Assembly (NCBI RefSeq): GCF_029395495.1
Contig: NZ_CP113918.1
Coordinates: 1,860,001 to 1,924,000 of the forward strand
Direction: 5' to 3'
Length of the DNA: 64,000 nucleotides
Source: Bifidobacterium sp. ESL0769
GTDB taxonomy: Bacteria > Actinomycetota > Actinomycetes > Actinomycetales > Bifidobacteriaceae
Shown here: in pieces, positions 10,053-42,670 of the stretch
How the letters are laid out: the number at the start of each line of letters is the position of its first letter
How positions within the stretch are numbered: the first letter of the stretch is position 1
Program-made: the position numbers and the translations under genes
The notes under the pieces: generated by a model
What the model saw: the letters and a program-made list of their open reading frames with translations, nothing else
Told to the model about the DNA's origin: nothing
The model's database searches: none

Positions 10053-13000
10053 CTAGTCACGGCGGCGCCTGCGCACCATCTGCAGGCCGAGCGCCATGAC
10101 CAGGGCGGACACCATCAGGCCCATCGGCACCGCGGTGTCGGAACCCGTGGCCGCCACAGACTTCGGCTTCGACTGGGACGCGAGCCACTTTTGACCCTCG
10201 GGCGTGGCAAGCCATGCCTGCCCGGCCAGTGTCTTCAGCCAGGCCTGGCCGGCCGGTGTCTTCAGCCAAGCCCAGCCAGCAGGTGTAGCCAGCCAAGCAT
10301 GGCCGTTGGAAGTCGCCAGCCAAGCAGCCCCGGCAGGAGTCGAAAGCCAGTGCTGACCCTCGGCCGTCGCAAGCCAGGCATGACCACCATTCGTGCCAAG
10401 CCATGCGGAACCCTCGGGCGTCTGCAACCAAGCATGGCCCTCAGGAGTCTGCAGCCACTGATGGCCCTGCGGCGTCTGCAGCCAAGCATGACCACCATCG
10501 GTGCCGAGCCACGCGGAGCCCTCAGACGTCTGCAACCAGGCGTGACCCTGCGGAGTCTGGAGCCACTGATGGCCCTGCGGCGTCTGCAGCCAAGCATGAC
10601 CCTCAGGAGACGAGACCCAGGCATGGCCATCTTGCGACGACAGCCAGTGCTGGCCCTCGGGCGTCTGTAACCAAGCATGGCCCTTGGGGGTGGAGACCCA
10701 CGCATGACCCTTGGAGCTCTCGAGCCAGTGCTGGCCTTCGGGCGTATCAAGCCAGTGGTGGCCCTCCGGGGTCTCGAGCCAGCCTTGGCTCGGCGGCTCA
10801 GTGACCTGCAGCTTCGTCCACTTGGCCATCACGGTCATGTTGCCGGTCACGATCGCGGTCGGGTCGTAAGGCACCAGGCTGCGCAGCATGCTCTCCACGA
10901 ACCAACCGTCGAAGCGGTAGCCGCTACGCACCGGGGTGGGCAGCTCGCCGATCGGATCGCCGTCGGCCAATATGCGCGGCGCGATCGGGTCACCGCCTTC
11001 CACGTTGAACGTGATGGTCAGTTGCGTCTTCCAAACCGGACGAATCGTGATGTCGTGCGCGGGAATCGTGGTGGCGGTGCCATCCCCGTCCGCGAACGTG
11101 AACGCGCTCCAGTCCGTGCCGTTGATGGAATACTGCCAGCCACGGGGCAGGAAGCCTGCCTTCGAGAACCCGCCAGCCGGCGCGGTCGCGATGGTTGAGC
11201 CGTAGTTGTGAGCGGAGACGCCCGGCATGGTCGGCCATGTGCCGCCGTCAGCGTCGAAGGTCACGTTGAACTGATCGATAACCCACTTCGGGCGAATCGT
11301 GATGTCCGAAGCCGGAATCGTGGTCGAGCCATACGCGAAGTTCTGCCACCCACCGGACGCAGCCTTGAACTCCCAGCCTTCCTGGTGCTTGTGCGCCGGA
11401 TTGGTCAGGTCGACCGTACCCGGAGCCGTGGCAATGGTTGAGCCATAGTCGTGCAAATCAGTGCCTGGCATGGAGGCCCAGCTAGCCCCGTCACCGGCAG
11501 CGTAGCCCACACGATACTGGTCCCAGGCGAACGTAGGACGAACGATGATGGCGTGAGCCGGGATCGCGGTACCCGTACCAGGGCCGCCGTACGTGAATGC
11601 ACTCCACGTCACGCCGTTGTCCTGCGAGAACTCCCAGGCGGCATGATGCTTATGCGCAGGCGCCGTCAGACCAGACGTGATGGGAGCCGTGGCCAGCGTC
11701 GAACCATAATCATGGTTCGTGGCACCGGGCCTGCCAGTCCACGAGGTCGCCTCACCATTCTGGTAAGAGACACCGTACTGATCCCAAGCAAACGTCGGAC
11801 GGATGATGATCGCATGCGCCGGAATCGCAGTACCCGTACCAGGGGCACCATACTTGAACGCACTCCACGTTGCGCCGTTGTCCTGCGAATACTCCCACGC
11901 AGCATGGTGCTTGTTGGCAGGAGCCGTCAGACCGGACGTGTTTGGAGCGGTGGTCAGCGTCGAACCGTAATCATGGTCCACCGGGCCGAGCATGCCCGTC
12001 CACGACGTCGCCTCACCAAGCTGGTAGGAGACACTGTATGTGTCCCAAGCGAAGGTCGGACGAATGATGATCGCATGCGCAGGAATCGCAGTACCCGTAC
12101 CAGGGGCACCATACGTAAACCCGTTCCACGTTGCGCCGTTATCCTGCGAATACTGCCAGGCAACATGATGCTTATGCGCAGGCGCCGTCAGACCGGACGT
12201 AACTGGAGCGGTGGCCAGCGTCGAACCATAATCATGGTTCGTGGCACCGGGCCTGCCGGTCCACGAGGTCGCCTCACCATTCTGGTAAGAGACACTGTAC
12301 TGATCCCAGGCAAACGTCGGACGAATGATGACGTCATGCGCCGGCATATGTGTGCCCGTGGAGCCGAACTCAAACGTGTTCCACGTTGCGCCGTTGTCCT
12401 GCGAATACTGCCAGGCATCGTGATGCTTGTGCGCAGGAGCCGTCAGATCCGAAACACTCGGCTCAGTCAGCGTGGAACCAAAATCATGGTCCACAGGGCC
12501 TAGCATGCCCGCCCAAGAAGTGGCCTCACCAAGCTGATAAGACACGCTGTACTGGTCCCAAGCGAACGTAGGACGAATAATGATGTCATGAGCGGGAACC
12601 GTGGTACCAGTACCGGGACCTCCGTAGGTGAACGGGCTCCACGTAGAGCCGTTATCCTTCGAATACTCCCAAGCGGCATGATGCTTGTTCGCCGGAGCGG
12701 TCAAATCGGACGTAAGCGGAGCGGTAGCCAGTGTCGAACCGTAATCATGGTCCACAGCGCCGGGCTTGCCGGCCCACGACGTCGCCTCACCAAGCCGGTA
12801 GGAGACGCTGTACTGATCCCAAGCGAAGGTCGGACGGATGATGATGTCATGAGCCGGAATCGCAGTACCAGTACCGGGAGCACCATACGTGAACGAGTTC
12901 CACGTCACGCCGTTATCTTGGGAGAACTCCCAGGCGGCATGATGCTTGTTCGCAGGAGCGGTCAGACCGGACGTGACAGGCTCGGTAGCCAGCGTCGAAC

Positions 13001-16000
13001 CGTAGTCGTGACGATCAGCCGCGGGCTTGTCCGTCCATGAAGTCGCTTCTCCGTTCTGGTAGGAAACGTTGTACGTATCCCACGCGAAGGTCGGCCGAAT
13101 AATGATGTCATGAGCAGGAATCGCGGTACCCGTACCCGGGGCACCATACTTGAATGCGCTCCACGTTGCGCCGTTGTCCTTCGAATACTCCCAAGCAGCA
13201 TGATGCTTGTTCGCAGGCGCGGTCAAATCGGAGGTGCCAGGCTCAGAGGCCAGCGTCGAACCATAATCATGGTTGACAGAACCAGGCATGCCGGCCCAAG
13301 AAGCCGCCTCACCAAGCTCATAGGAGACGCTGTACTGATCCCAAGCAAACGTCGGACGAATAATGATGTCATGAGCAGGAATCGCAGTGCCCGTACCGGG
13401 GGCACCATACTTGAATGCGCTCCACGTTGCGCCGTTGTCCTTTGAATACTGCCACGCAGCATGATGCTTGTGCGCGGGCGCATTCAGACCAGACGTACTA
13501 GGCTCGGTGGCCAACGTCGAACCATAGTCATGATCCACGGCACCGGGCTTGCCGGTCCACGACGTCGCCTCACCATTCTGGTAAGAGACGCCGTACTGGT
13601 CCCAAGCAAACGTAGGACGGATGATGATGCTGTGGGCGGGAACATGCGTGCCGGTGGAACCATACTCAAACGGGTTCCACGTCACGCCGTTGTCCTGCGA
13701 ATACTCCCAAGCGTCATGATGCTTATGCGCCGGAGCGTTCAGGCCGGACGTGCCGGGCTCGGTAAGCGTCGAATTGTAGGCGTGGTCAGCAGCACTCGGC
13801 TTGCCAGTCCACGACGTCGCCTCACCAAGCTGATAGGACACACTATACTGATCGGACGAGAACGTCGGTCGAATAATGATGGCATGCGCTGGGATATGCG
13901 TACCCGTGGGGCCGAACTCGAACGGGTCCCATGTGGCACCGCTGTCCTTCGAATATTCCCAAGCATTATGGTGCTTGTTCATAGGCGCAATCAAATCCGA
14001 AATATTCGGCTCGGTCAGCGTGGAACCGTAATCATGATCTACGGCGCCAGGCTTACCAGCCCACGACGTCGCCTCACCAAGCTGGTAAGACACACTGTAC
14101 TGATCCCAAGCAAACGTCGGACGAATGACAATCGCATGCGCCGGCATATGAGTGCCCGTAGACCCATACTCGAACGGATTCCATGTGGCACCGCCATCCT
14201 GAGAATACTGCCACGCAGCATGGTGCTTGTTGGACGGAGCCGTCAAATCAGTAGTAGCAGGCTCGCTCAGCGTGGAGCCGTAATCATGGTTCACAGCATT
14301 GGGCTTGCCGGCCCAGGAGGTCGCCTCACCAAGCTGGTAGGTCACGCCATATTGATCCCACGCGAACGTCGGACGAATGATGATGCCATGAGCCGGGATA
14401 TGAGTACCAGTGGAACCAAACTCAAACGGATCCCATGTGGCACCATTATCCTTCGAATACTGCCAGGCATCGTGGTGCTTATTGGCAGGCGCCACTAAAT
14501 CGGACGTGCTCGGCTCGGAGAGCGTGGAGCCATAGTCATGATCCACAGGGCCGAGCATGCCCGCCCAAGAAGTCGCCTCGCCAAGCTGGTAAGAAACGCT
14601 GTACTGATTCCAAGCAAACGTCGGACGAATGACAATCGCGTGCGCCGGCATATGAGTACCAGTGGGCCCGAACTCGAACGAATCCCATGTCGCCCCATTG
14701 TCCTTCGAATACTGCCAAGCATCGTGGTGCTTGTTCGCAGGCGCATTCAGACCGGACGTACTAGGCTCGCTAAGAGTCGAGCCATAATCATGATTCACGG
14801 CCGCAGGCTTGCCAATCCACGACGTCGCATCGCCATTCTCATAAGAGACGCTGTACTGATCCCACGCGAACGTCGGACGAATGACGATTGCATGCGCAGG
14901 CATATGCGTGCCAGTGGAACCAAACTCGAACGGGTTCCAAGTAGCACCATTGTCCTGTGAATATTGCCAGGCATCATGATGCTTGTTGGTCGGGGCGTTC
15001 AGGCCAGAGATACTGGGCTCGCTCAGCGTGGAATTGTAAGCGTGGTCAGCAGCACCGGGCTTGCCGGCCCACGACGTCGCCTCACCAAGCTGATAGGAAA
15101 CGCTATACGTATCCATGGTGAATGTCGGACGAATAATAATCGCATGCGCAGGCATATGCGTACCAGTGGAGCCAAACTCGAACGGATTCCAAGTGGCACC
15201 ATCATCCTTCGAATACTCCCAAGCGTCATGATGCTTATTCGCAGGAGCCATCAAATCAGAAGTACCAGGCTCGGTCAACGTCGAACCGTAATCATGATTA
15301 ACGTCACTAGGTATACCCGCCCAAGAGGTCGCATCGCCAAGCTCGTAGGAGACACCATATTGATCCCACGCGAACGTCGGCCGAATGATGATGTCGTGAG
15401 CCGGAATTGCAGTACCGGAACCCGGACCGCCAAACACGAACGGGCCCCAAGTAGCACCGTTGTCCTTCGAATACTCCCAAGCAGCATGATGCTTGTTCGC
15501 AGGAGCCACCAAATCTGTGATAGGCGGAGCAGAAGCCAATGTCGAACCATAGTCATGGTCCTCGGCCGTGGGCTTACTATCCCACGAAGTCGCCTCGCCC
15601 TTTTGGTAGGACACGTTATATTGGTCGGTCACCCACTTCGGACGCACCGTAATGTCATAAGCCGGCACATGGGTCACACCGAACTTGAACTCGGCCCAAT
15701 TCTCCGTACTGTCCGTCTTGCGATACTCCCAGCCGCTCGTCAACGTGTCCTGGTGCTTGTTCGACGGAGGCGCGAAATCGGTCAAACTCGGCTGGGACAC
15801 CGTATCATCCTCGCCAACCCGCACGGGCGAAGCGGGCATGTCAGACCACGAGCCGCCGTTCTTGTCATACGTCAGCTGGTGGGGGATTCCCTCCCACACC
15901 GGGCGCACCGTGATCGGCCAGTCGGGCATGTGCGTGCCGCCGAACGTGAACGTCGCCCAGTCGTCGCTGCTGCTCGTCTTGCGATACTGCCAGCCACTGC

Positions 16001-17594
16001 GCTGCTTGTGCGCCGGGGCCTTAAGGTGCGACAGGTTCGTCGGTTCGGGAACCGTCGCATCATACGCAGTGGATACCGCACCCTGCGGCGTGCCGTCCCA
16101 CGTGCCGCCGTTCAGATCGAACGTGACATCATGATAGGCCGGAACCCAGGAGGCGTACAACGTCACCGTAGAAGCCGTGGTGTAAACGACGTCAAAGCCG
16201 TACACCGGACCTGTTGCGCTACCTGTATGCCAAGCACCGAAAGTACATCCCGCTTTCGTCGGGTTCGCCGGAGCATGCGCCGTACCGCCCCACGGCACCT
16301 CCTGGTCCGGTATGCTGCCGCCGCCCTGCGAATCGAAACGCACCGTCGGATGACCGGTGACATGCGACACCGGATCACCCGTCACCGTACCTGCGGGGGC
16401 GCTGCCGGTCACTCCGCCGGGAAGCGAGCCCGCGAAATCGAACTTGGGATTGGCGGTGCCGGAAGGCCAGCTCACCACATGAGAAGCGGAATCATACGAA
16501 CCACCCGACGGGCTGATATTCGACGCGGCAATGAGCGTCCCATCAATATTCTTCGCTGTCGACATCGTCACATGCGAGCCGTCGTCATATGCTGTCTCGG
16601 TCACTACCTGTCCCGAAGCTTCGAGTTGACTCAGATGCAGGCTGTTCAGCGGCGAGAAATCGGTAATCTTGTTGCCGGTCAGTCGCAGGTACGCCAGCGA
16701 CGTCAAACCGCGCAACGGCGACAAATCAACAATACTGTTACGATTTGCCAAGCCAGCTACATTCTGTAGATTCAAAGTTTGCAGGTTGGTCCAACCTGCC
16801 AACGGCGACAAATCAGTGATGCGATCGTAGTACAGTCCCGCGCTGGTCAGGCCGGTCAAACCAGCCAACGGCGACAAATCGGACACCGGGACGTTGGCCA
16901 TTTCCAGGTTTCTCAGCGATGTCAGGCCGCTCAACGGCGACACATCGGTAAACGGATTAGTATCCAAGTTCACGTCCGTCAGATGAGTGAGATACTGCAT
17001 GCCATTGAGACTCGAAATATTGTTGCCATTGAGCGTCAGGGACGTCAAGTGGGTCAGACCAGCCAACGGCGATAAACTAGTCACCTGATTATTACCTAAG
17101 TTTAAGTAAGTCAAGTGGGTCAGACCAGCCAACGGCGACAAATCAGTTACCTGATTGTGAGCCAAGTCCAGAGTCGTCAGATTGGCGAGATTCTGTATGC
17201 CTTCAAGGCTTGCGATACTCGACCAGCCCGCGCTCAAGCTTGTGGTTCCGTTAACCATTGCCTGCGTGAAGGTCGAGTTCACGTTTACATGTTCCGCAGA
17301 GGCTACTTTGGCCGCCAGATACGTATCCGGGAAACACTGGGCAATCGTGCTTACGTTGACATAGCAACTGCTACGCGGGCTGATACCGCCGCCACGCGGC
17401 TGGAGGCCGGACTTGCCACGCTTGGTTGATTTTGAAGATTCGGACGACTTCTGCCTCTGCTGGGATTCGCCAGGCGACACTGCCTGACCCTGCTGTGCAG
17501 AAGAGGATTGTGATTGCGTTTGCTCGGAGGCCTCGCCGCCTTCGGGCTCGACCGCCGTCGCCGTGCCGGGCAGCACCATCGCCACACCCGCCAC
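10053..17594 (-). CDS. Giant repetitive cell-wall surface protein (start separated by a frameshift)
   Basis: Open frame of 2513 codons from a GTG at 17594. Order of parts, in residues of this frame: a signal-peptide end (ATA-VEPE near 15); internalin-type leucine-rich repeats about 120-325 (units such as LSPLAGLTHLTYLNL); a linker; about 20 tandem units of roughly 84 residues at 486-2195, 18 of them close (motifs YSVSY, GEATSW, HDYGSTL, NKHHDAW); an InlB B-repeat/Flg_new-like unit; 22 nonapeptide repeats of the type HAWLQTPEG at about 2266-2470; and a C-terminal VAATG, hydrophobic helix and RRRRR tail, like a sortase signal. It is probably an adhesin. The natural start is likely the ATG pair at 17686/17683, preceded by AGAAGGA, but a G10 run places it out of frame with this body. 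With 11 or 8 G residues a complete signal peptide would be read. Confidence 0.85.
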   Translation of the reverse strand: MAGVAMVLPGTATAVEPEGGEASEQTQSQSSSAQQGQAVSPGESQQRQKSSESSKSTKRGKSGLQPRGGGISPRSSCYVNVSTIAQCFPDTYLAAKVASAEHVNVNSTFTQAMVNGTTSLSAGWSSIASLEGIQNLANLTTLDLAHNQVTDLSPLAGLTHLTYLNLGNNQVTSLSPLAGLTHLTSLTLNGNNISSLNGMQYLTHLTDVNLDTNPFTDVSPLSGLTSLRNLEMANVPVSDLSPLAGLTGLTSAGLYYDRITDLSPLAGWTNLQTLNLQNVAGLANRNSIVDLSPLRGLTSLAYLRLTGNKITDFSPLNSLHLSQLEASGQVVTETAYDDGSHVTMSTAKNIDGTLIAASNISPSGGSYDSASHVVSWPSGTANPKFDFAGSLPGGVTGSAPAGTVTGDPVSHVTGHPTVRFDSQGGGSIPDQEVPWGGTAHAPANPTKAGCTFGAWHTGSATGPVYGFDVVYTTASTVTLYASWVPAYHDVTFDLNGGTWDGTPQGAVSTAYDATVPEPTNLSHLKAPAHKQRSGWQYRKTSSSDDWATFTFGGTHMPDWPITVRPVWEGIPHQLTYDKNGGSWSDMPASPVRVGEDDTVSQPSLTDFAPPSNKHQDTLTSGWEYRKTDSTENWAEFKFGVTHVPAYDITVRPKWVTDQYNVSYQKGEATSWDSKPTAEDHDYGSTLASAPPITDLVAPANKHHAAWEYSKDNGATWGPFVFGGPGSGTAIPAHDIIIRPTFAWDQYGVSYELGDATSWAGIPSDVNHDYGSTLTEPGTSDLMAPANKHHDAWEYSKDDGATWNPFEFGSTGTHMPAHAIIIRPTFTMDTYSVSYQLGEATSWAGKPGAADHAYNSTLSEPSISGLNAPTNKHHDAWQYSQDNGATWNPFEFGSTGTHMPAHAIVIRPTFAWDQYSVSYENGDATSWIGKPAAVNHDYGSTLSEPSTSGLNAPANKHHDAWQYSKDNGATWDSFEFGPTGTHMPAHAIVIRPTFAWNQYSVSYQLGEATSWAGMLGPVDHDYGSTLSEPSTSDLVAPANKHHDAWQYSKDNGATWDPFEFGSTGTHIPAHGIIIRPTFAWDQYGVTYQLGEATSWAGKPNAVNHDYGSTLSEPATTDLTAPSNKHHAAWQYSQDGGATWNPFEYGSTGTHMPAHAIVIRPTFAWDQYSVSYQLGEATSWAGKPGAVDHDYGSTLTEPNISDLIAPMNKHHNAWEYSKDSGATWDPFEFGPTGTHIPAHAIIIRPTFSSDQYSVSYQLGEATSWTGKPSAADHAYNSTLTEPGTSGLNAPAHKHHDAWEYSQDNGVTWNPFEYGSTGTHVPAHSIIIRPTFAWDQYGVSYQNGEATSWTGKPGAVDHDYGSTLATEPSTSGLNAPAHKHHAAWQYSKDNGATWSAFKYGAPGTGTAIPAHDIIIRPTFAWDQYSVSYELGEAASWAGMPGSVNHDYGSTLASEPGTSDLTAPANKHHAAWEYSKDNGATWSAFKYGAPGTGTAIPAHDIIIRPTFAWDTYNVSYQNGEATSWTDKPAADRHDYGSTLATEPVTSGLTAPANKHHAAWEFSQDNGVTWNSFTYGAPGTGTAIPAHDIIIRPTFAWDQYSVSYRLGEATSWAGKPGAVDHDYGSTLATAPLTSDLTAPANKHHAAWEYSKDNGSTWSPFTYGGPGTGTTVPAHDIIIRPTFAWDQYSVSYQLGEATSWAGMLGPVDHDFGSTLTEPSVSDLTAPAHKHHDAWQYSQDNGATWNTFEFGSTGTHMPAHDVIIRPTFAWDQYSVSYQNGEATSWTGRPGATNHDYGSTLATAPVTSGLTAPAHKHHVAWQYSQDNGATWNGFTYGAPGTGTAIPAHAIIIRPTFAWDTYSVSYQLGEATSWTGMLGPVDHDYGSTLTTAPNTSGLTAPANKHHAAWEYSQDNGATWSAFKYGAPGTGTAIPAHAIIIRPTFAWDQYGVSYQNGEATSWTGRPGATNHDYGSTLATAPITSGLTAPAHKHHAAWEFSQDNGVTWSAFTYGGPGTGTAIPAHAIIVRPTFAWDQYRVGYAAGDGASWASMPGTDLHDYGSTIATAPGTVDLTNPAHKHQEGWEFKAASGGWQNFAYGSTTIPASDITIRPKWVIDQFNVTFDADGGTWPTMPGVSAHNYGSTIATAPAGGFSKAGFLPRGWQYSINGTDWSAFTFADGDGTATTIPAHDITIRPVWKTQLTITFNVEGGDPIAPRILADGDPIGELPTPVRSGYRFDGWFVESMLRSLVPYDPTAIVTGNMTVMAKWTKLQVTEPPSQGWLETPEGHHWLDTPEGQHWLESSKGHAWVSTPKGHAWLQTPEGQHWLSSQDGHAWVSSPEGHAWLQTPQGHQWLQTPQGHAWLQTSEGSAWLGTDGGHAWLQTPQGHQWLQTPEGHAWLQTPEGSAWLGTNGGHAWLATAEGQHWLSTPAGAAWLATSNGHAWLATPAGWAWLKTPAGQAWLKTLAGQAWLATPEGQKWLASQSKPKSVAATGSDTAVPMGLMVSALVMALGLQMVRRRRRD
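10183..10797 (-). repeat. 22 tandem 27-bp repeats (Trp-Leu nonapeptides)
   Basis: Coding repeats in the giant surface protein. Each unit of nine residues follows xxWLxTPxG (for example HAWLQTPEG, SAWLGTDGG). They lie between the B-repeat unit and the anchor, where wall-spanning segments usually sit. Confidence 0.9.
11010..16137 (-). repeat. About 20 tandem repeats of roughly 255 bp
   Basis: Coding repeats in the giant surface protein. Each unit of about 84 residues contains YxVSYxxGEATSW, HDYGSTL, a NKHHxAWxYS block, GATW and IIIRPTF. The two units nearest the N-terminus and the last two are more diverged. Close similarity between units means copy number is likely to vary and short-read assembly could miscount them. 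Confidence 0.9.
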
Positions 17595-17619
17595 AAGGCA
17601 AACTAGAGCCCTAAACGCA

Positions 17620-17629
17620 CCCCCCCCCC
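17620..17629 (-). repeat. Homopolymer tract G10 in the signal-peptide region
   Basis: Ten C on the plus strand, i.e. ten G in the coding direction of the surface gene. From the ATG at 17686 the reading frame meets TAG at 17605-17603 after 27 codons. Adding one G or removing two joins the ATG to the 2513-codon frame. Confidence 0.9.
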
Positions 17630-17686
17630 GCGATGGGAGGCAAAGTCACGCAAACCGCGCAACCACTTAGTGAAACGAGACATCAT

Positions 17687-18310
17687 CCTTCTTCTCCCTG
17701 TATCAATGGAAACACCCGCACCGCAAACCACCCCGGCGCGGAACTACACTTCAGACACGCAAAACTGTAACACGACCACGACACGAGCACCGCATTTCTG
17801 CCTAATTAATGAAACATAATCTTCTCTTTCAAACGTTTAATACGACTTTTCGGTTTTTTATATTCAGACAATTATCATTAAATTGCAGAACAGCGGCAAC
17901 ACCGTTTCTCAGATCGTCTATTTCACACCAAACGCTTTGCATTGCAACACTTCAGCCAACCGCACTGTATTCGCCCATTCACTGCCACCACCACCCGACT
18001 GTCTTCCGCCAACTCATCTATGTATAACGTTTTAAGAAAATTCCAAAAATTTTTTCCAAAAAATTCCCTGACAAAATAATTAGACACGCCGAACACCCAA
18101 AAACGTTGAGTTGCAAAACCTGTTTTGGGAGATACCTGCCGATTGCATGTCCGATACCCTGGGTTATAAGCAACAACCCAGCCCCGTATCTACGGAGGCG
18201 TGCGGACAGAATTCCAGTTAGTGCAAAATTTGCACTAACTGCCGAAGGCGGCAAAACATACCAAAGCCGCCTTCTCAATCCGCGTTTCGTAGCTTCTCTT
18301 TGGCGGCCTC
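17687..18310. other. Intergenic region with two inverted repeats
   Basis: No convincing gene. On the minus strand, TTACAG and TGTAGT about 16 bp apart (near 17745-17772) may be the promoter of the surface gene. A 25-bp near-perfect palindrome lies at 18216-18240 (12-base arms AGTTAGTGCAAA) and a 9-bp-arm hairpin at 18244-18274 (GAAGGCGGC...GCCGCCTTC). The latter follows the stop of the HipA-like gene and could serve as its terminator, although no T-run follows. Confidence 0.5.
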
Positions 18311-19528
18311 TTAATCCTCCAGCTGCTCCAACGCCCAAGCAAACCGTGTTTCCATCGCTTTGATGGAAGCATGGTCAAGGCCCCGAATTCGCGCCCGCCC
18401 GATGGCCTGTTTGAGCGCCGAACGCAACGACGACTCGTAGCTTTTGGCCTCCGGATGACTGATGCCGAACAAACCCAACGCTTTGTCAGTCACCAACGCC
18501 GCGATGTCCACATGCGGTTCTTCGAACAGCGAGAGTTCATGGATATTGTCATCCTCGTCATAGTAAGGCTCAGGGTTCAGATCGAAAGCCGGAGACAATT
18601 GCCATCCGTTGCCCACACGCAGGAAACCATGGTTACGCAGATGGTCGTCTCGGTTGCCGATGGCCGCGCCGAATAACGCCCGTCGCCACAATTCATGGGT
18701 ATCGGCCCCGACGGCCCGCGCGGTTGCCACCAAGTCCTCCCAGTCGCCGCCCTCTCCATCCACGGCTTGCAAGGCAGTCAACGCCGAAATGTAAGGAATT
18801 CGCACCAAGTGCTCAGGCGTGCCTTCACCGGCACGATCGAAACGTTTCGTCAGCAGCACCGTCCGTTGCCTCCGGGCAGCGTCCTTAATTTTGACAACCT
18901 GATGCTCGGGCACATCAATCCCCGCCATTTCGGCAATCTCGAGCGTCACCGCCTCCCAACCAATGACATCCCAATTCTCGCCGTCAGGCTTGGGGAACTT
19001 GGCCATCCATAAGGCGTTACGGTCAGACACCGACGCTTTGGGCCGCGCGCCACCCAATGAACCCGTGGCTTGGTAAAGACGCCGCAACGAGGCGTCATCA
19101 ACGTCCTGGTTGTTCTGCACCGCGTCTGCCGTGTCCAGCAAATCCGGCAAATTGGCCTGGACGGGAACACCCTCGTTACCTGCCAGCGGCTTACCGTCAC
19201 TGAAAAACCTCAGAGCGCCCTGCCTTGTGACATCGTTCACGCCGAGGAGATATTCCGATTCGGGAAGATTACGGCCTTTGCGGTTACGGTCGATAATCCT
19301 TCTACCCCAACGATCGGGAGCGGCATCAGAAAACTGTCCGAGCTTATCGAACGAAAACGACCGTGTCGCGAATTGCAGGAACGGCGTGAGCTCGAACGCC
19401 CTGGGATCGCGTATGTACTCGTCGGCATACAGAAAAGTGGACGTGTTCCCCTGGAAATACAATGTGCCGGCCACAAGTTCCTGGCCGTCGCCAAGTCCTG
19501 TGCGAACTTCAACCTGCCGCTCACTCAT
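18311..19528 (-). CDS. HipA-family serine/threonine kinase toxin
   Basis: 405-residue HipA-like kinase, which in studied members phosphorylates a translation factor such as a tRNA synthetase to stop growth. Visible blocks: TGSLGGARPKAS (P-loop-like), the Lys of WMAKFP, the catalytic GNRDDHLRNHGF, and the metal-binding SPAFDLNP. The ATG at 19528 is preferred over a TTG two codons upstream because AAGGAAG lies 8 bases before it. It lies 69 bp after the HTH gene and is probably co-transcribed with it as a toxin-antitoxin module. Confidence 0.88.
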   Translation of the reverse strand: MSERQVEVRTGLGDGQELVAGTLYFQGNTSTFLYADEYIRDPRAFELTPFLQFATRSFSFDKLGQFSDAAPDRWGRRIIDRNRKGRNLPESEYLLGVNDVTRQGALRFFSDGKPLAGNEGVPVQANLPDLLDTADAVQNNQDVDDASLRRLYQATGSLGGARPKASVSDRNALWMAKFPKPDGENWDVIGWEAVTLEIAEMAGIDVPEHQVVKIKDAARRQRTVLLTKRFDRAGEGTPEHLVRIPYISALTALQAVDGEGGDWEDLVATARAVGADTHELWRRALFGAAIGNRDDHLRNHGFLRVGNGWQLSPAFDLNPEPYYDEDDNIHELSLFEEPHVDIAALVTDKALGLFGISHPEAKSYESSLRSALKQAIGRARIRGLDHASIKAMETRFAWALEQLED

Positions 19529-19597
19529 ACGCAACCACTTCCTTCATCAAACATCACACCAATCGTACCGAAACGCCCAAGACTAGGCCACCACCCC

Positions 19598-41931: not shown

Positions 41932-42302
41932 ATCCACACCCATTCCATGAACGACGAATCGACAAGGCTTCATCGAGTTTCATCAAGAAACCCACCGCTC
42001 ATTTGTTGAAAACAATGACCAGTATATTCAAATAAAACAGCTATTACTAATTATCATTAAAAAGTGTGACTCAATAGATAAACTGCGCCACGCCATAAAA
42101 ACAACGCGCCGAATGACTTCTAGACCTTTTAATGCACCAACGACACAACAATCCTGACCTTTAAACCAACACGGATTGGGCCAAGACAAGCACATGACCA
42201 TCGAATCCTAAAATCAAATATTCCGGCTTATAAATCACGATTCTTGAAGCATCACACTGAATGACCAGATTCGGCAATCCCTTTCGTCATCGAAAAAGAA
42301 AA
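41932..42302. other. Intergenic region upstream of the cassette
   Basis: About 370 bp. No gene supported. A -10-like TATACT at 42021-42026 (minus) could serve the cassette but lacks a good -35. Confidence 0.4.
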
Positions 42303-42384
42303 CCTTCACGCACCCGACAGAGGCCACTTACCCTTGCTGCATTCCTGCCCTGGGGGGTTTGGGTGACATAACGCCACGTGAAGG
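42303..42384 (-). ncRNA. ffs: SRP RNA (4.5S-type)
   Basis: Minus strand hairpin closed by 8-bp arms (42303-42310 and 42377-42384). The loop region carries the SRP signature: GGCAGGAATGCAGC and AAGGGTAA, preceded by CCCAAACCCCCCAG. A T-rich run (TTTTCTTTTT) follows as a terminator. This is the small bacterial form of the signal recognition particle RNA, which binds Ffh. Ends are estimated from the stem. Confidence 0.92.
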
Positions 42385-42670
42385 CTTAACCAGTATACCC
42401 CATGCCCGGACCGTGCGTCGGAACCTTGCCGAGACAAAACGATCAGGACGAAAATTCTCACTGCCCAAGACAACCGGCAAATTCGAGTAGGCAGGAAAAT
42501 CGATTTCCCTATACTCGAAAAAGCTGATTTCTTCAGCAAACGGACACTGCAGAGGGGGAACGGGAGGTAACACCAACCCGGCGAGTACCATGGAAACAAC
42601 AATCACCGCAGACATGTACAAACGCGTGCAGCGAGTAACGACGTGACGAACGACAAGAAAAGGAAACGCA

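What the first reader, a model, noticed from the sequence alone, without database searches (positions are those of the whole stretch)
17594..17686. G10 tract in the signal peptide suggests ON/OFF phase switching of a giant surface protein
Seen in sequence: the ATG at 17686 (with AGAAGGA) and the 2513-codon frame are out of phase by one base in the G run at 17620-17629. In the present state the peptide stops after 27 codons. One extra G would give a full signal peptide (charged start, hydrophobic core, ATA cleavage site) joined to the body. Homopolymer slippage is an established route to phase variation, and switching by G tracts is known for bifidobacterial pilus genes.
Basis: partly seen in the sequence, partly recalled or inferred. 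Interest (0 to 1): 0.86.

Follow-up and report, generated by a model that had tools for sequence, protein, structure and literature searches.

The report
Slippage switch in giant surface gene
A bifidobacterium carries a run of ten G's inside the export signal of a giant surface protein, and this gene belongs to a set that the cell can probably switch on and off by small copying slips, as already shown for the pili of a related gut bacterium.

Summary
In detail: G10 at 17620-17629 (minus strand) puts a 27-codon leader (ATG 17686) one base out of phase with the 2513-codon body. It is not chance: the genome has eight G/C runs of 9 or more, where 0.25 runs of 10 or more are expected, and all eight lie in 5' leaders of large surface-protein genes. 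Three are paralogues of the window gene; the copy at 2.331 Mb is naturally in frame. Five are C runs in genes with LPXTG-like tails. A close relative, apparently Bifidobacterium sp. ESL0690, keeps the design, and tract-free relatives have continuous leaders. Best reading: slipped-strand phase variation, as measured for B. breve pili (PMC9187656); here the protein is internalin-like and not in a pilus operon. Caution: of 25 tract leaders counted in four genomes, 23 are out of frame and all 23 are exactly one base short, none long. Random switching does not predict this, so homopolymer undercalling or programmed recoding stays possible, and 'OFF now' is less certain than the design. No reads or further strains were reachable; switching itself is not shown.

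The parts
17687..17698 (-). Ribosome-binding-like stretch GGGAGAAGAAGG before ATG 17686 and ATG 17683
   Evidence: Read directly; equivalent stretch before the leader ATG of all six G-family loci
17603..17686 (-). Leader frame: 27 codons with basic residues, then TAG at 17605-17603
   Evidence: codon-position pattern over six G-family leaders
17620..17629 (-). G10 run that separates leader frame and body frame by one base
   Evidence: one of eight G/C runs of 9 or more in the genome; state
10053..17594 (-). Body frame, 2513 codons from GTG 17594; its first residues are the hydrophobic core and ATA cleavage-like site
   Evidence: no SD word before this GTG
16599..17354 (-). Internalin-like cap and leucine-rich repeat region, about residues 81-332
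   Evidence: LRR_4 above cut-off; phmmer to internalin structures, best E 1.3e-67; below NCBIfam internalin cut-offs
11025..15392 (-). Block of about 18 repeats spaced 84-87 residues, about residues 735-2190
   Evidence: Motif count and spacing; alignment of 15 two-repeat pieces, mean column identity 77%
10185..10763 (-). Short W-L repeats, about 22 motif matches, about residues 2278-2470
   Evidence: Motif count; sequence
10056..10163 (-). Sorting-signal-like C-terminus: VAATGSD, hydrophobic stretch, RRRRRD
   Evidence: Read from the translation; motif is degenerate, no sortase substrate test made

Best explanation
The G10 run is a phase-variation switch inside the coding region of the signal peptide. 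Translation starts at ATG 17686. When replication slippage brings the run into the in-frame length class, the basic leader is joined to the hydrophobic core, and the giant internalin-like protein is exported and anchored to the cell surface. In the other length classes translation stops after about 27 codons and little or no protein is made. The gene is one of eight loci of this genome with the same design, in two families of large surface proteins, so a population probably shows varying subsets of them. Shown from sequence: tract, frames, start signal, a natural in-frame paralogue, tract-free in-frame relatives, the same design in a close relative. Inferred: slippage in living cells, export, anchoring, and an adhesin-like role.
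For: Eight G/C runs of 9 or more in the genome against 0.25 runs of 10 or more expected, 8 of 8 in such leaders. Natural in-frame paralogue at 2.331 Mb with G11 and one open frame of 2,946 residues. Same leader region at three loci in G085, G10 in all three. Second family with C runs: in G000 four C10, one C7 and the 1.284 Mb C10; in G085 six C10; in G089 six C9; in G086 one C11. Tract-free in-frame members: two in G000, two in G085, one in G089, and a tract-free homologue of the window gene in G086. MutS_V not found while 11 of 14 control genomes give it; NucS found; that NucS does not repair slipped loops is recalled. Experimental precedent in the genus: PMC9187656. Precedent in the family, with InlB B-repeat and LPXTG proteins among tract genes: PMC11287997, passages.
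Against: No length variation was observed in cells or strains. 23 of 25 tract leaders are one base short, 2 in frame, 0 one base long; random switching would mix the phases. Run length is uniform within each genome (10 in 15 of the 17 runs of 9 or more in leaders of G000 and G085 that are out of frame or not counting the C7; for each). The in-frame copy at 2.331 Mb does not differ from its neighbours by run length alone: its 3' flank has also changed, two bases fewer over run plus flank. The other in-frame case (G086) has a body that ends after 873 codons of stop-to-stop frame without a sorting tail. The database's predicted protein for the 2.331 Mb copy starts at residue 36, so the gene caller did not use the leader ATG. 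The C7 member keeps the same out-of-frame phase with a run probably too short to slip often.
Confidence: 0.72

Rival explanations
1. Homopolymer undercalling. The true runs are one base longer, so most of these genes are really in frame, and the OFF state is an assembly artefact. The genes could still be phase-variable.
For: All 23 out-of-frame leaders are short by one and none is long, while called lengths differ between species. PMC9187656 warns that annotated G-tract lengths can differ from the population.
Against: The assembly seems low in indels: seven of the eight long bodies of G000 are open over 1,828 to 3,291 codons (window 2,513) and only the 1.284 Mb one is broken. Runs of 11 were called in two genomes. 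Sequencing technology is unknown to me.
Confidence: 0.15
2. Programmed recoding. The runs are kept one base short, and the body is reached by -1 ribosomal frameshifting or by RNA-polymerase slippage at the run.
For: Shared phase in 23 of 25 loci; the C7 member keeps the phase.
Against: No unusual RNA structure after the run: z-score -0.42, 62 of 200 shuffles fold as well. In-frame and tract-free members exist. RNA-polymerase slippage is best known at A/T runs (PMC3711429, passage). Proline CCC runs are better known for +1 shifts (recalled).
Confidence: 0.08
3. Restart at GTG 17594 after the leader stop, with the leader as a regulatory or coupling peptide; this is where public annotation of the relatives starts the protein.
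For: GTG lies 8 nt after the leader stop in all five out-of-frame G-family loci; the ESL0690 proteins P0079 and P0116 begin at the equivalent codon.
Against: No SD word before that GTG in any of the five. The product would start without basic residues before the hydrophobic core. Of 18 out-of-frame C-family loci, 14 have no body-frame start in the scanned stretch after the leader stop and none has one within 70 nt.
Confidence: 0.03
4. Fixed frameshift pseudogenes.
For: The 1.284 Mb member has a second break in its body.
Against: The other bodies of G000 are open over 1,828 codons or more, the C7 member 1,590 codons; run, phase and leader are shared between species.
Confidence: 0.02

Closest known systems
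G-tract replication-slippage switch of sortase-dependent pili in Bifidobacterium breve UCC2003, bbr_0113 and bbr_1889 (PMC9187656)
   Same: G run of 10-11 between an upstream frame with start and Sec signal and a large downstream frame without good start signals; same genus; the paper lists such tracts in pilus clusters of five species.
   Different: There it is the first gene of a pilus cluster with a dedicated sortase, and lengths were measured in cells. Here the gene has no sortase or pilin neighbour, the run cuts the signal peptide itself, a second family uses C runs, and nothing was measured in cells.
Homopolymer-tract phase variation in Gardnerella (PMC11287997)
   Same: Same bacterial family; tract-linked genes include InlB B-repeat and LPXTG surface proteins; a tract in a GA-module gene was 9 or 10 long between colonies (passages).
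   Different: In Gardnerella most G/C tracts (about 70%) lie upstream of genes rather than inside a signal peptide (passage); homology of the genes was not tested here.
Internalins (LRR plus B repeats)
   Same: Cap and LRR similar to InlA and InlB structures; List_Bact_rpt/Flg_new repeats.
   Different: Far below NCBIfam internalin cut-offs, for example 219.6 bits against 1600 for InlA; long block of 84-87-residue repeats and a W-L tail.

Membership tests
Slipped-strand phase-variable gene | Homopolymer run in the coding region whose length sets the reading frame | tested here: met
Slipped-strand phase-variable gene | Run longer than chance and confined to surface genes | tested here: met
   Met in G000: 8 of 8 runs of 9 or more. 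In G085 only 9 of 12 such runs lie in these leaders
Slipped-strand phase-variable gene | Both in-frame and out-of-frame alleles occur among relatives | tested here: inconclusive
   2 in frame, 23 one base short, 0 one base long of 25; the in-frame G-family copy also has a changed flank
Slipped-strand phase-variable gene | Length varies between cells of one strain | not testable with these tools
   No reads or further strains available
Bifidobacterial G-tract pilus cluster | Sortase gene and pilin genes in the same cluster | tested here: not met
   Nearest sortase matches to the window gene are at 1.593 and 2.180 Mb, about 280-300 kb away. Neighbours: DapB, DHDPS, RNase J, HipA-like, PIN, MFS. 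The C-family array has sortase matches at 2.423 and 2.427 Mb, within 20 kb
Bifidobacterial G-tract pilus cluster | Run between a Sec-signal frame and the body frame of a surface protein | tested here: met
Internalin | Score above the curated family cut-off | tested here: not met
   InlA 219.6 of 1600 bits, InlH 140.5 of 1050, InlJ 43.9 of 1700, InlK 22.6 of 1100
Sortase-anchored surface protein | LPXTG-type motif, hydrophobic stretch, basic tail | tested here: inconclusive
   Window protein has VAATGSD, hydrophobic stretch and RRRRRD; a relative has VPATGS; C-family members have LPLTGG
Programmed -1 frameshift gene | Stimulatory RNA structure after the slip site | tested here: not met
   z-score -0.42; only the window locus was folded

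The most novel reading that the evidence does not exclude
Selection holds these runs exactly one base short of the in-frame phase in several Bifidobacterium species, and the giant surface proteins are made at a set low level by -1 recoding at G or C runs within the signal-peptide codons, with slippage of the run as a second layer. The surface repertoire would then be throttled at the export signal itself.
Probability: 0.08. Interest if true: 0.8.

Novelty: new member of a known kind. Interest (0 to 1): 0.5.

Why it matters
If the runs switch in cells, this commensal carries at least eight separately switchable large surface proteins of two kinds, all controlled at the signal peptide. That would extend the pilus finding to a whole surface repertoire and give a simple sequence test of how bifidobacteria vary their surface. 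Database proteins of the relatives start at an internal codon, so the leader and the switch are hidden in annotation. The shared one-base-short phase is a sharp puzzle that one resequencing experiment can settle.

Tried and rejected
Species name: two scans of genome contigs named no Bifidobacterium (no relative; two distant LRR hits, in Erysipelothrix anatis and a Eubacteriales MAG, not analysed further). The nearest genome seen, G085, has the same length (2,639,791 bp) as the contig of Bifidobacterium sp. ESL0690; the identity is inferred from that. That ESL strains come from bees is recalled only.

Strain comparison: of three protein searches, (2 hits; 7 hits) gave only proteins of the window's own genome and ESL0690. 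One search listed 120 of 436 hits, dominated by unrelated LRR proteins; among those listed the Bifidobacterium ones were again from these two genomes. So no within-species tract lengths could be compared.

Genus-wide survey: 112 of 112 genomes have a G run of 9 or more (only part of the places is listed). I fetched tract regions of G001, G006, G007, G019, G020 and G015, and part of those of G011, and classified only the first five. Their runs are mostly not in leaders of this kind; one G020 run (L177) sits in a leader one base short, and others there read as one base long. I did not classify G015 and G011, and make no genus-wide count.

Frameshift-stimulating structure: none found. Promoter scan: 3 matches against 0.8 expected, one on the gene's strand at 17899-17871; no terminator-like site; not used as evidence. 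Pfam matches to BNR, Reelin_subrepeat-B and CHB_HEX_C I take as chance similarity in repeats. Fold of the 84-87-residue repeat: job not accepted. Sequencing technology of ESL strains: one search, one review listed, not read.

Full report
OBSERVATION. On the minus strand the window shows ATG 17686 (second ATG 17683) after GGGAGAAGAAGG, a leader of 27 codons ending at TAG 17605-17603, and G10 at 17629-17620. The 2513-codon frame runs from GTG 17594 to 10053. The body frame carries the hydrophobic core and the ATA site directly after the run.

MORE THAN CHANCE. From the window's composition, 0.25 runs of 10 or more G or C are expected in 2.5 Mb. The genome (2,495,776 bp, one contig) holds eight runs of 9 or more: seven of 10, one of 11, none of exactly 9. 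Six more have length 7 or 8. Of these six, two lie in what I read as ribosomal RNA genes, one is spanned by no open frame of 80 codons, one lies inside a 359-codon open frame, one near the start of a 503-codon stop-to-stop frame, and one is the C7 member described below.

A SET OF LOCI. All eight long runs lie in 5' leaders of large surface-protein genes. G family: the window gene, a copy at 2.093 Mb (G10, body 3,291 codons) and one at 2.331 Mb (G11). A DNA search with 361 bases of the leader region finds exactly these three, at 100, 91 and 87% identity. The 2.331 Mb copy is in frame as it stands and gives 2,946 residues with leader, LRR region, repeats and sorting-like tail. Its flank differs too, with two bases fewer over run plus flank than its counterpart in G085, and the database's predicted protein for it starts at residue 36. 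C family, coded on the other strand: four C10 loci at 2.44-2.485 Mb, bodies 1,828-2,151 codons, LPLTGG tails, and one C7 member at 2.469 Mb. One more C10 locus, at 1.284 Mb, has a second break in its body.

RELATIVES. The 201-base leader region matched 4 of 112 genomes of the genus: the window's own (3 loci), G085 (3 loci, 89-96%), and short matches in G086 and G089. The G086 match is a tract-free homologue with an uninterrupted leader; the G089 match was not pursued. The three G085 loci all have G10. G085 has the length of the ESL0690 contig. By protein, the C family is found in 7 of 112 genomes. Tract-free members with continuous leaders: two in G000, two in G085, one in G089; the single loci looked at in G087, G090, G092 and G093 have no long run either.

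FRAME COUNT. G000, G085, G086 and G089 hold 8, 12, 1 and 6 runs of 9 or more. 24 of these 27 lie in leaders of this kind; three of G085 do not. With the C7 member this makes 25 loci: 23 one base short of the in-frame phase, 2 in frame, 0 one base long. The called lengths differ (C9 in G089; G10 or C10 in G000 and G085), so the phase is shared and the length is not. If three phases were equally likely and loci independent, no 'long' case in 24 would have probability 6e-5, and two or fewer in-frame cases 0.005. The loci are paralogues and orthologues, so the real weight is much smaller. This is the main result against simple random switching. It could follow from a bias to lose one base: in B. 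breve a G10 locus showed 6.5% G9 and 0.1% longer, although the G11 locus showed 59% G12 and 3% G10. It could also come from undercalling or programmed recoding. I did not lower the switch below 0.72, because tract-free and in-frame members and the genus precedent hold under all three.

LEADER. In six G-family leaders 13 of 54 sites vary: 7 at codon position 1, 6 at position 3, none at position 2. In ten C-family leaders 14 of 57 vary: 5, 2 and 7 at positions 1, 2 and 3. Several position-1 changes replace residues, so this is mild evidence that the leader is translated.

START ELSEWHERE. In the five out-of-frame G-family loci a GTG lies 8 nt after the leader stop with no SD word. Of 18 out-of-frame C-family loci, 14 have no body-frame start in the scanned stretch after the leader stop, and none has one within 70 nt. 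Restart is therefore not a shared design.

PROTEIN. Residues about 81-332 are an internalin-like cap and LRR region, below all NCBIfam internalin cut-offs. Then come List_Bact_rpt/Flg_new units, about 18 repeats spaced 84-87 residues, about 22 W-L motifs, and a degenerate sorting-like tail. Neighbours are DapB, DHDPS and RNase J on one side and HipA-like, PIN-domain and MFS genes on the other. The genome has seven sortase matches, none within 250 kb of the gene. So this is not a pilus operon.

MECHANISM. MutS_V gives no match, while 11 of 14 control genomes do; NucS is present. This fits poor repair of slipped loops; that NucS ignores such loops is recalled. RNA after the window run has no unusual structure.

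LITERATURE. PMC9187656: abstract and sections 12, 15, 18, 21 and 22 read. It shows the pilus switch by maximum-depth sequencing, lists pilus-cluster tracts in five species, and says that other relevant G tracts exist in UCC2003 outside its scope. PMC12104195, PMC11287997, PMC3711429 and PMC10757668: passages only. Six searches listed no paper on these giant genes; only an open-licence library was searched.

VERDICT. Observation confirmed. The switch is the best reading (0.72) but not demonstrated. The present OFF state is uncertain. It is a new member of a known kind, of interest for the number of loci, the second family and the shared phase.

Noticed in passing
G000:C1 whole contig; also G001, G006, G007, G011, G015, G019, G020, G085, G086, G089: G runs of 9 or more tend to lie on the leading strand whatever the gene's direction: 8 of 8 in G000, 84 of 105 over eleven genomes if the origin is at coordinate 1 and the terminus half-way. 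G019 gives only 1 of 6. The origin is my reading of genes near coordinate 1 in G000, G085 and G086 only; paralogues inflate the count and no short-run baseline was made.
   Followed up: partly
L021:13853-13859 (G000 2.469 Mb): C-family member with only C7, still in the same out-of-frame phase as C10, where a G085 locus with the same leader (L106) has C10.
   Followed up: partly
L023 / L215 (G000 1.284 Mb): Surface gene with a second frame break in its body, while the G085 relative (L216) is open over 1,743 codons.
   Followed up: no
L097, L098, L101 (G085): Three further long G runs of G085 not in giant-gene leaders; by my reading one lies in a transposase-like region and two at or between gene starts.
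   Followed up: no
L177 (G020 1.249 Mb): G10 between a short leader-like frame and a 609-codon body in another Bifidobacterium, also one base short; protein not identified.
   Followed up: no
window 18311-19534 (-): HipA-like gene next to the giant gene (HipA_C above cut-off).
   Followed up: no
window 42294-42390 (-): Bacterial small SRP RNA.
   Followed up: no
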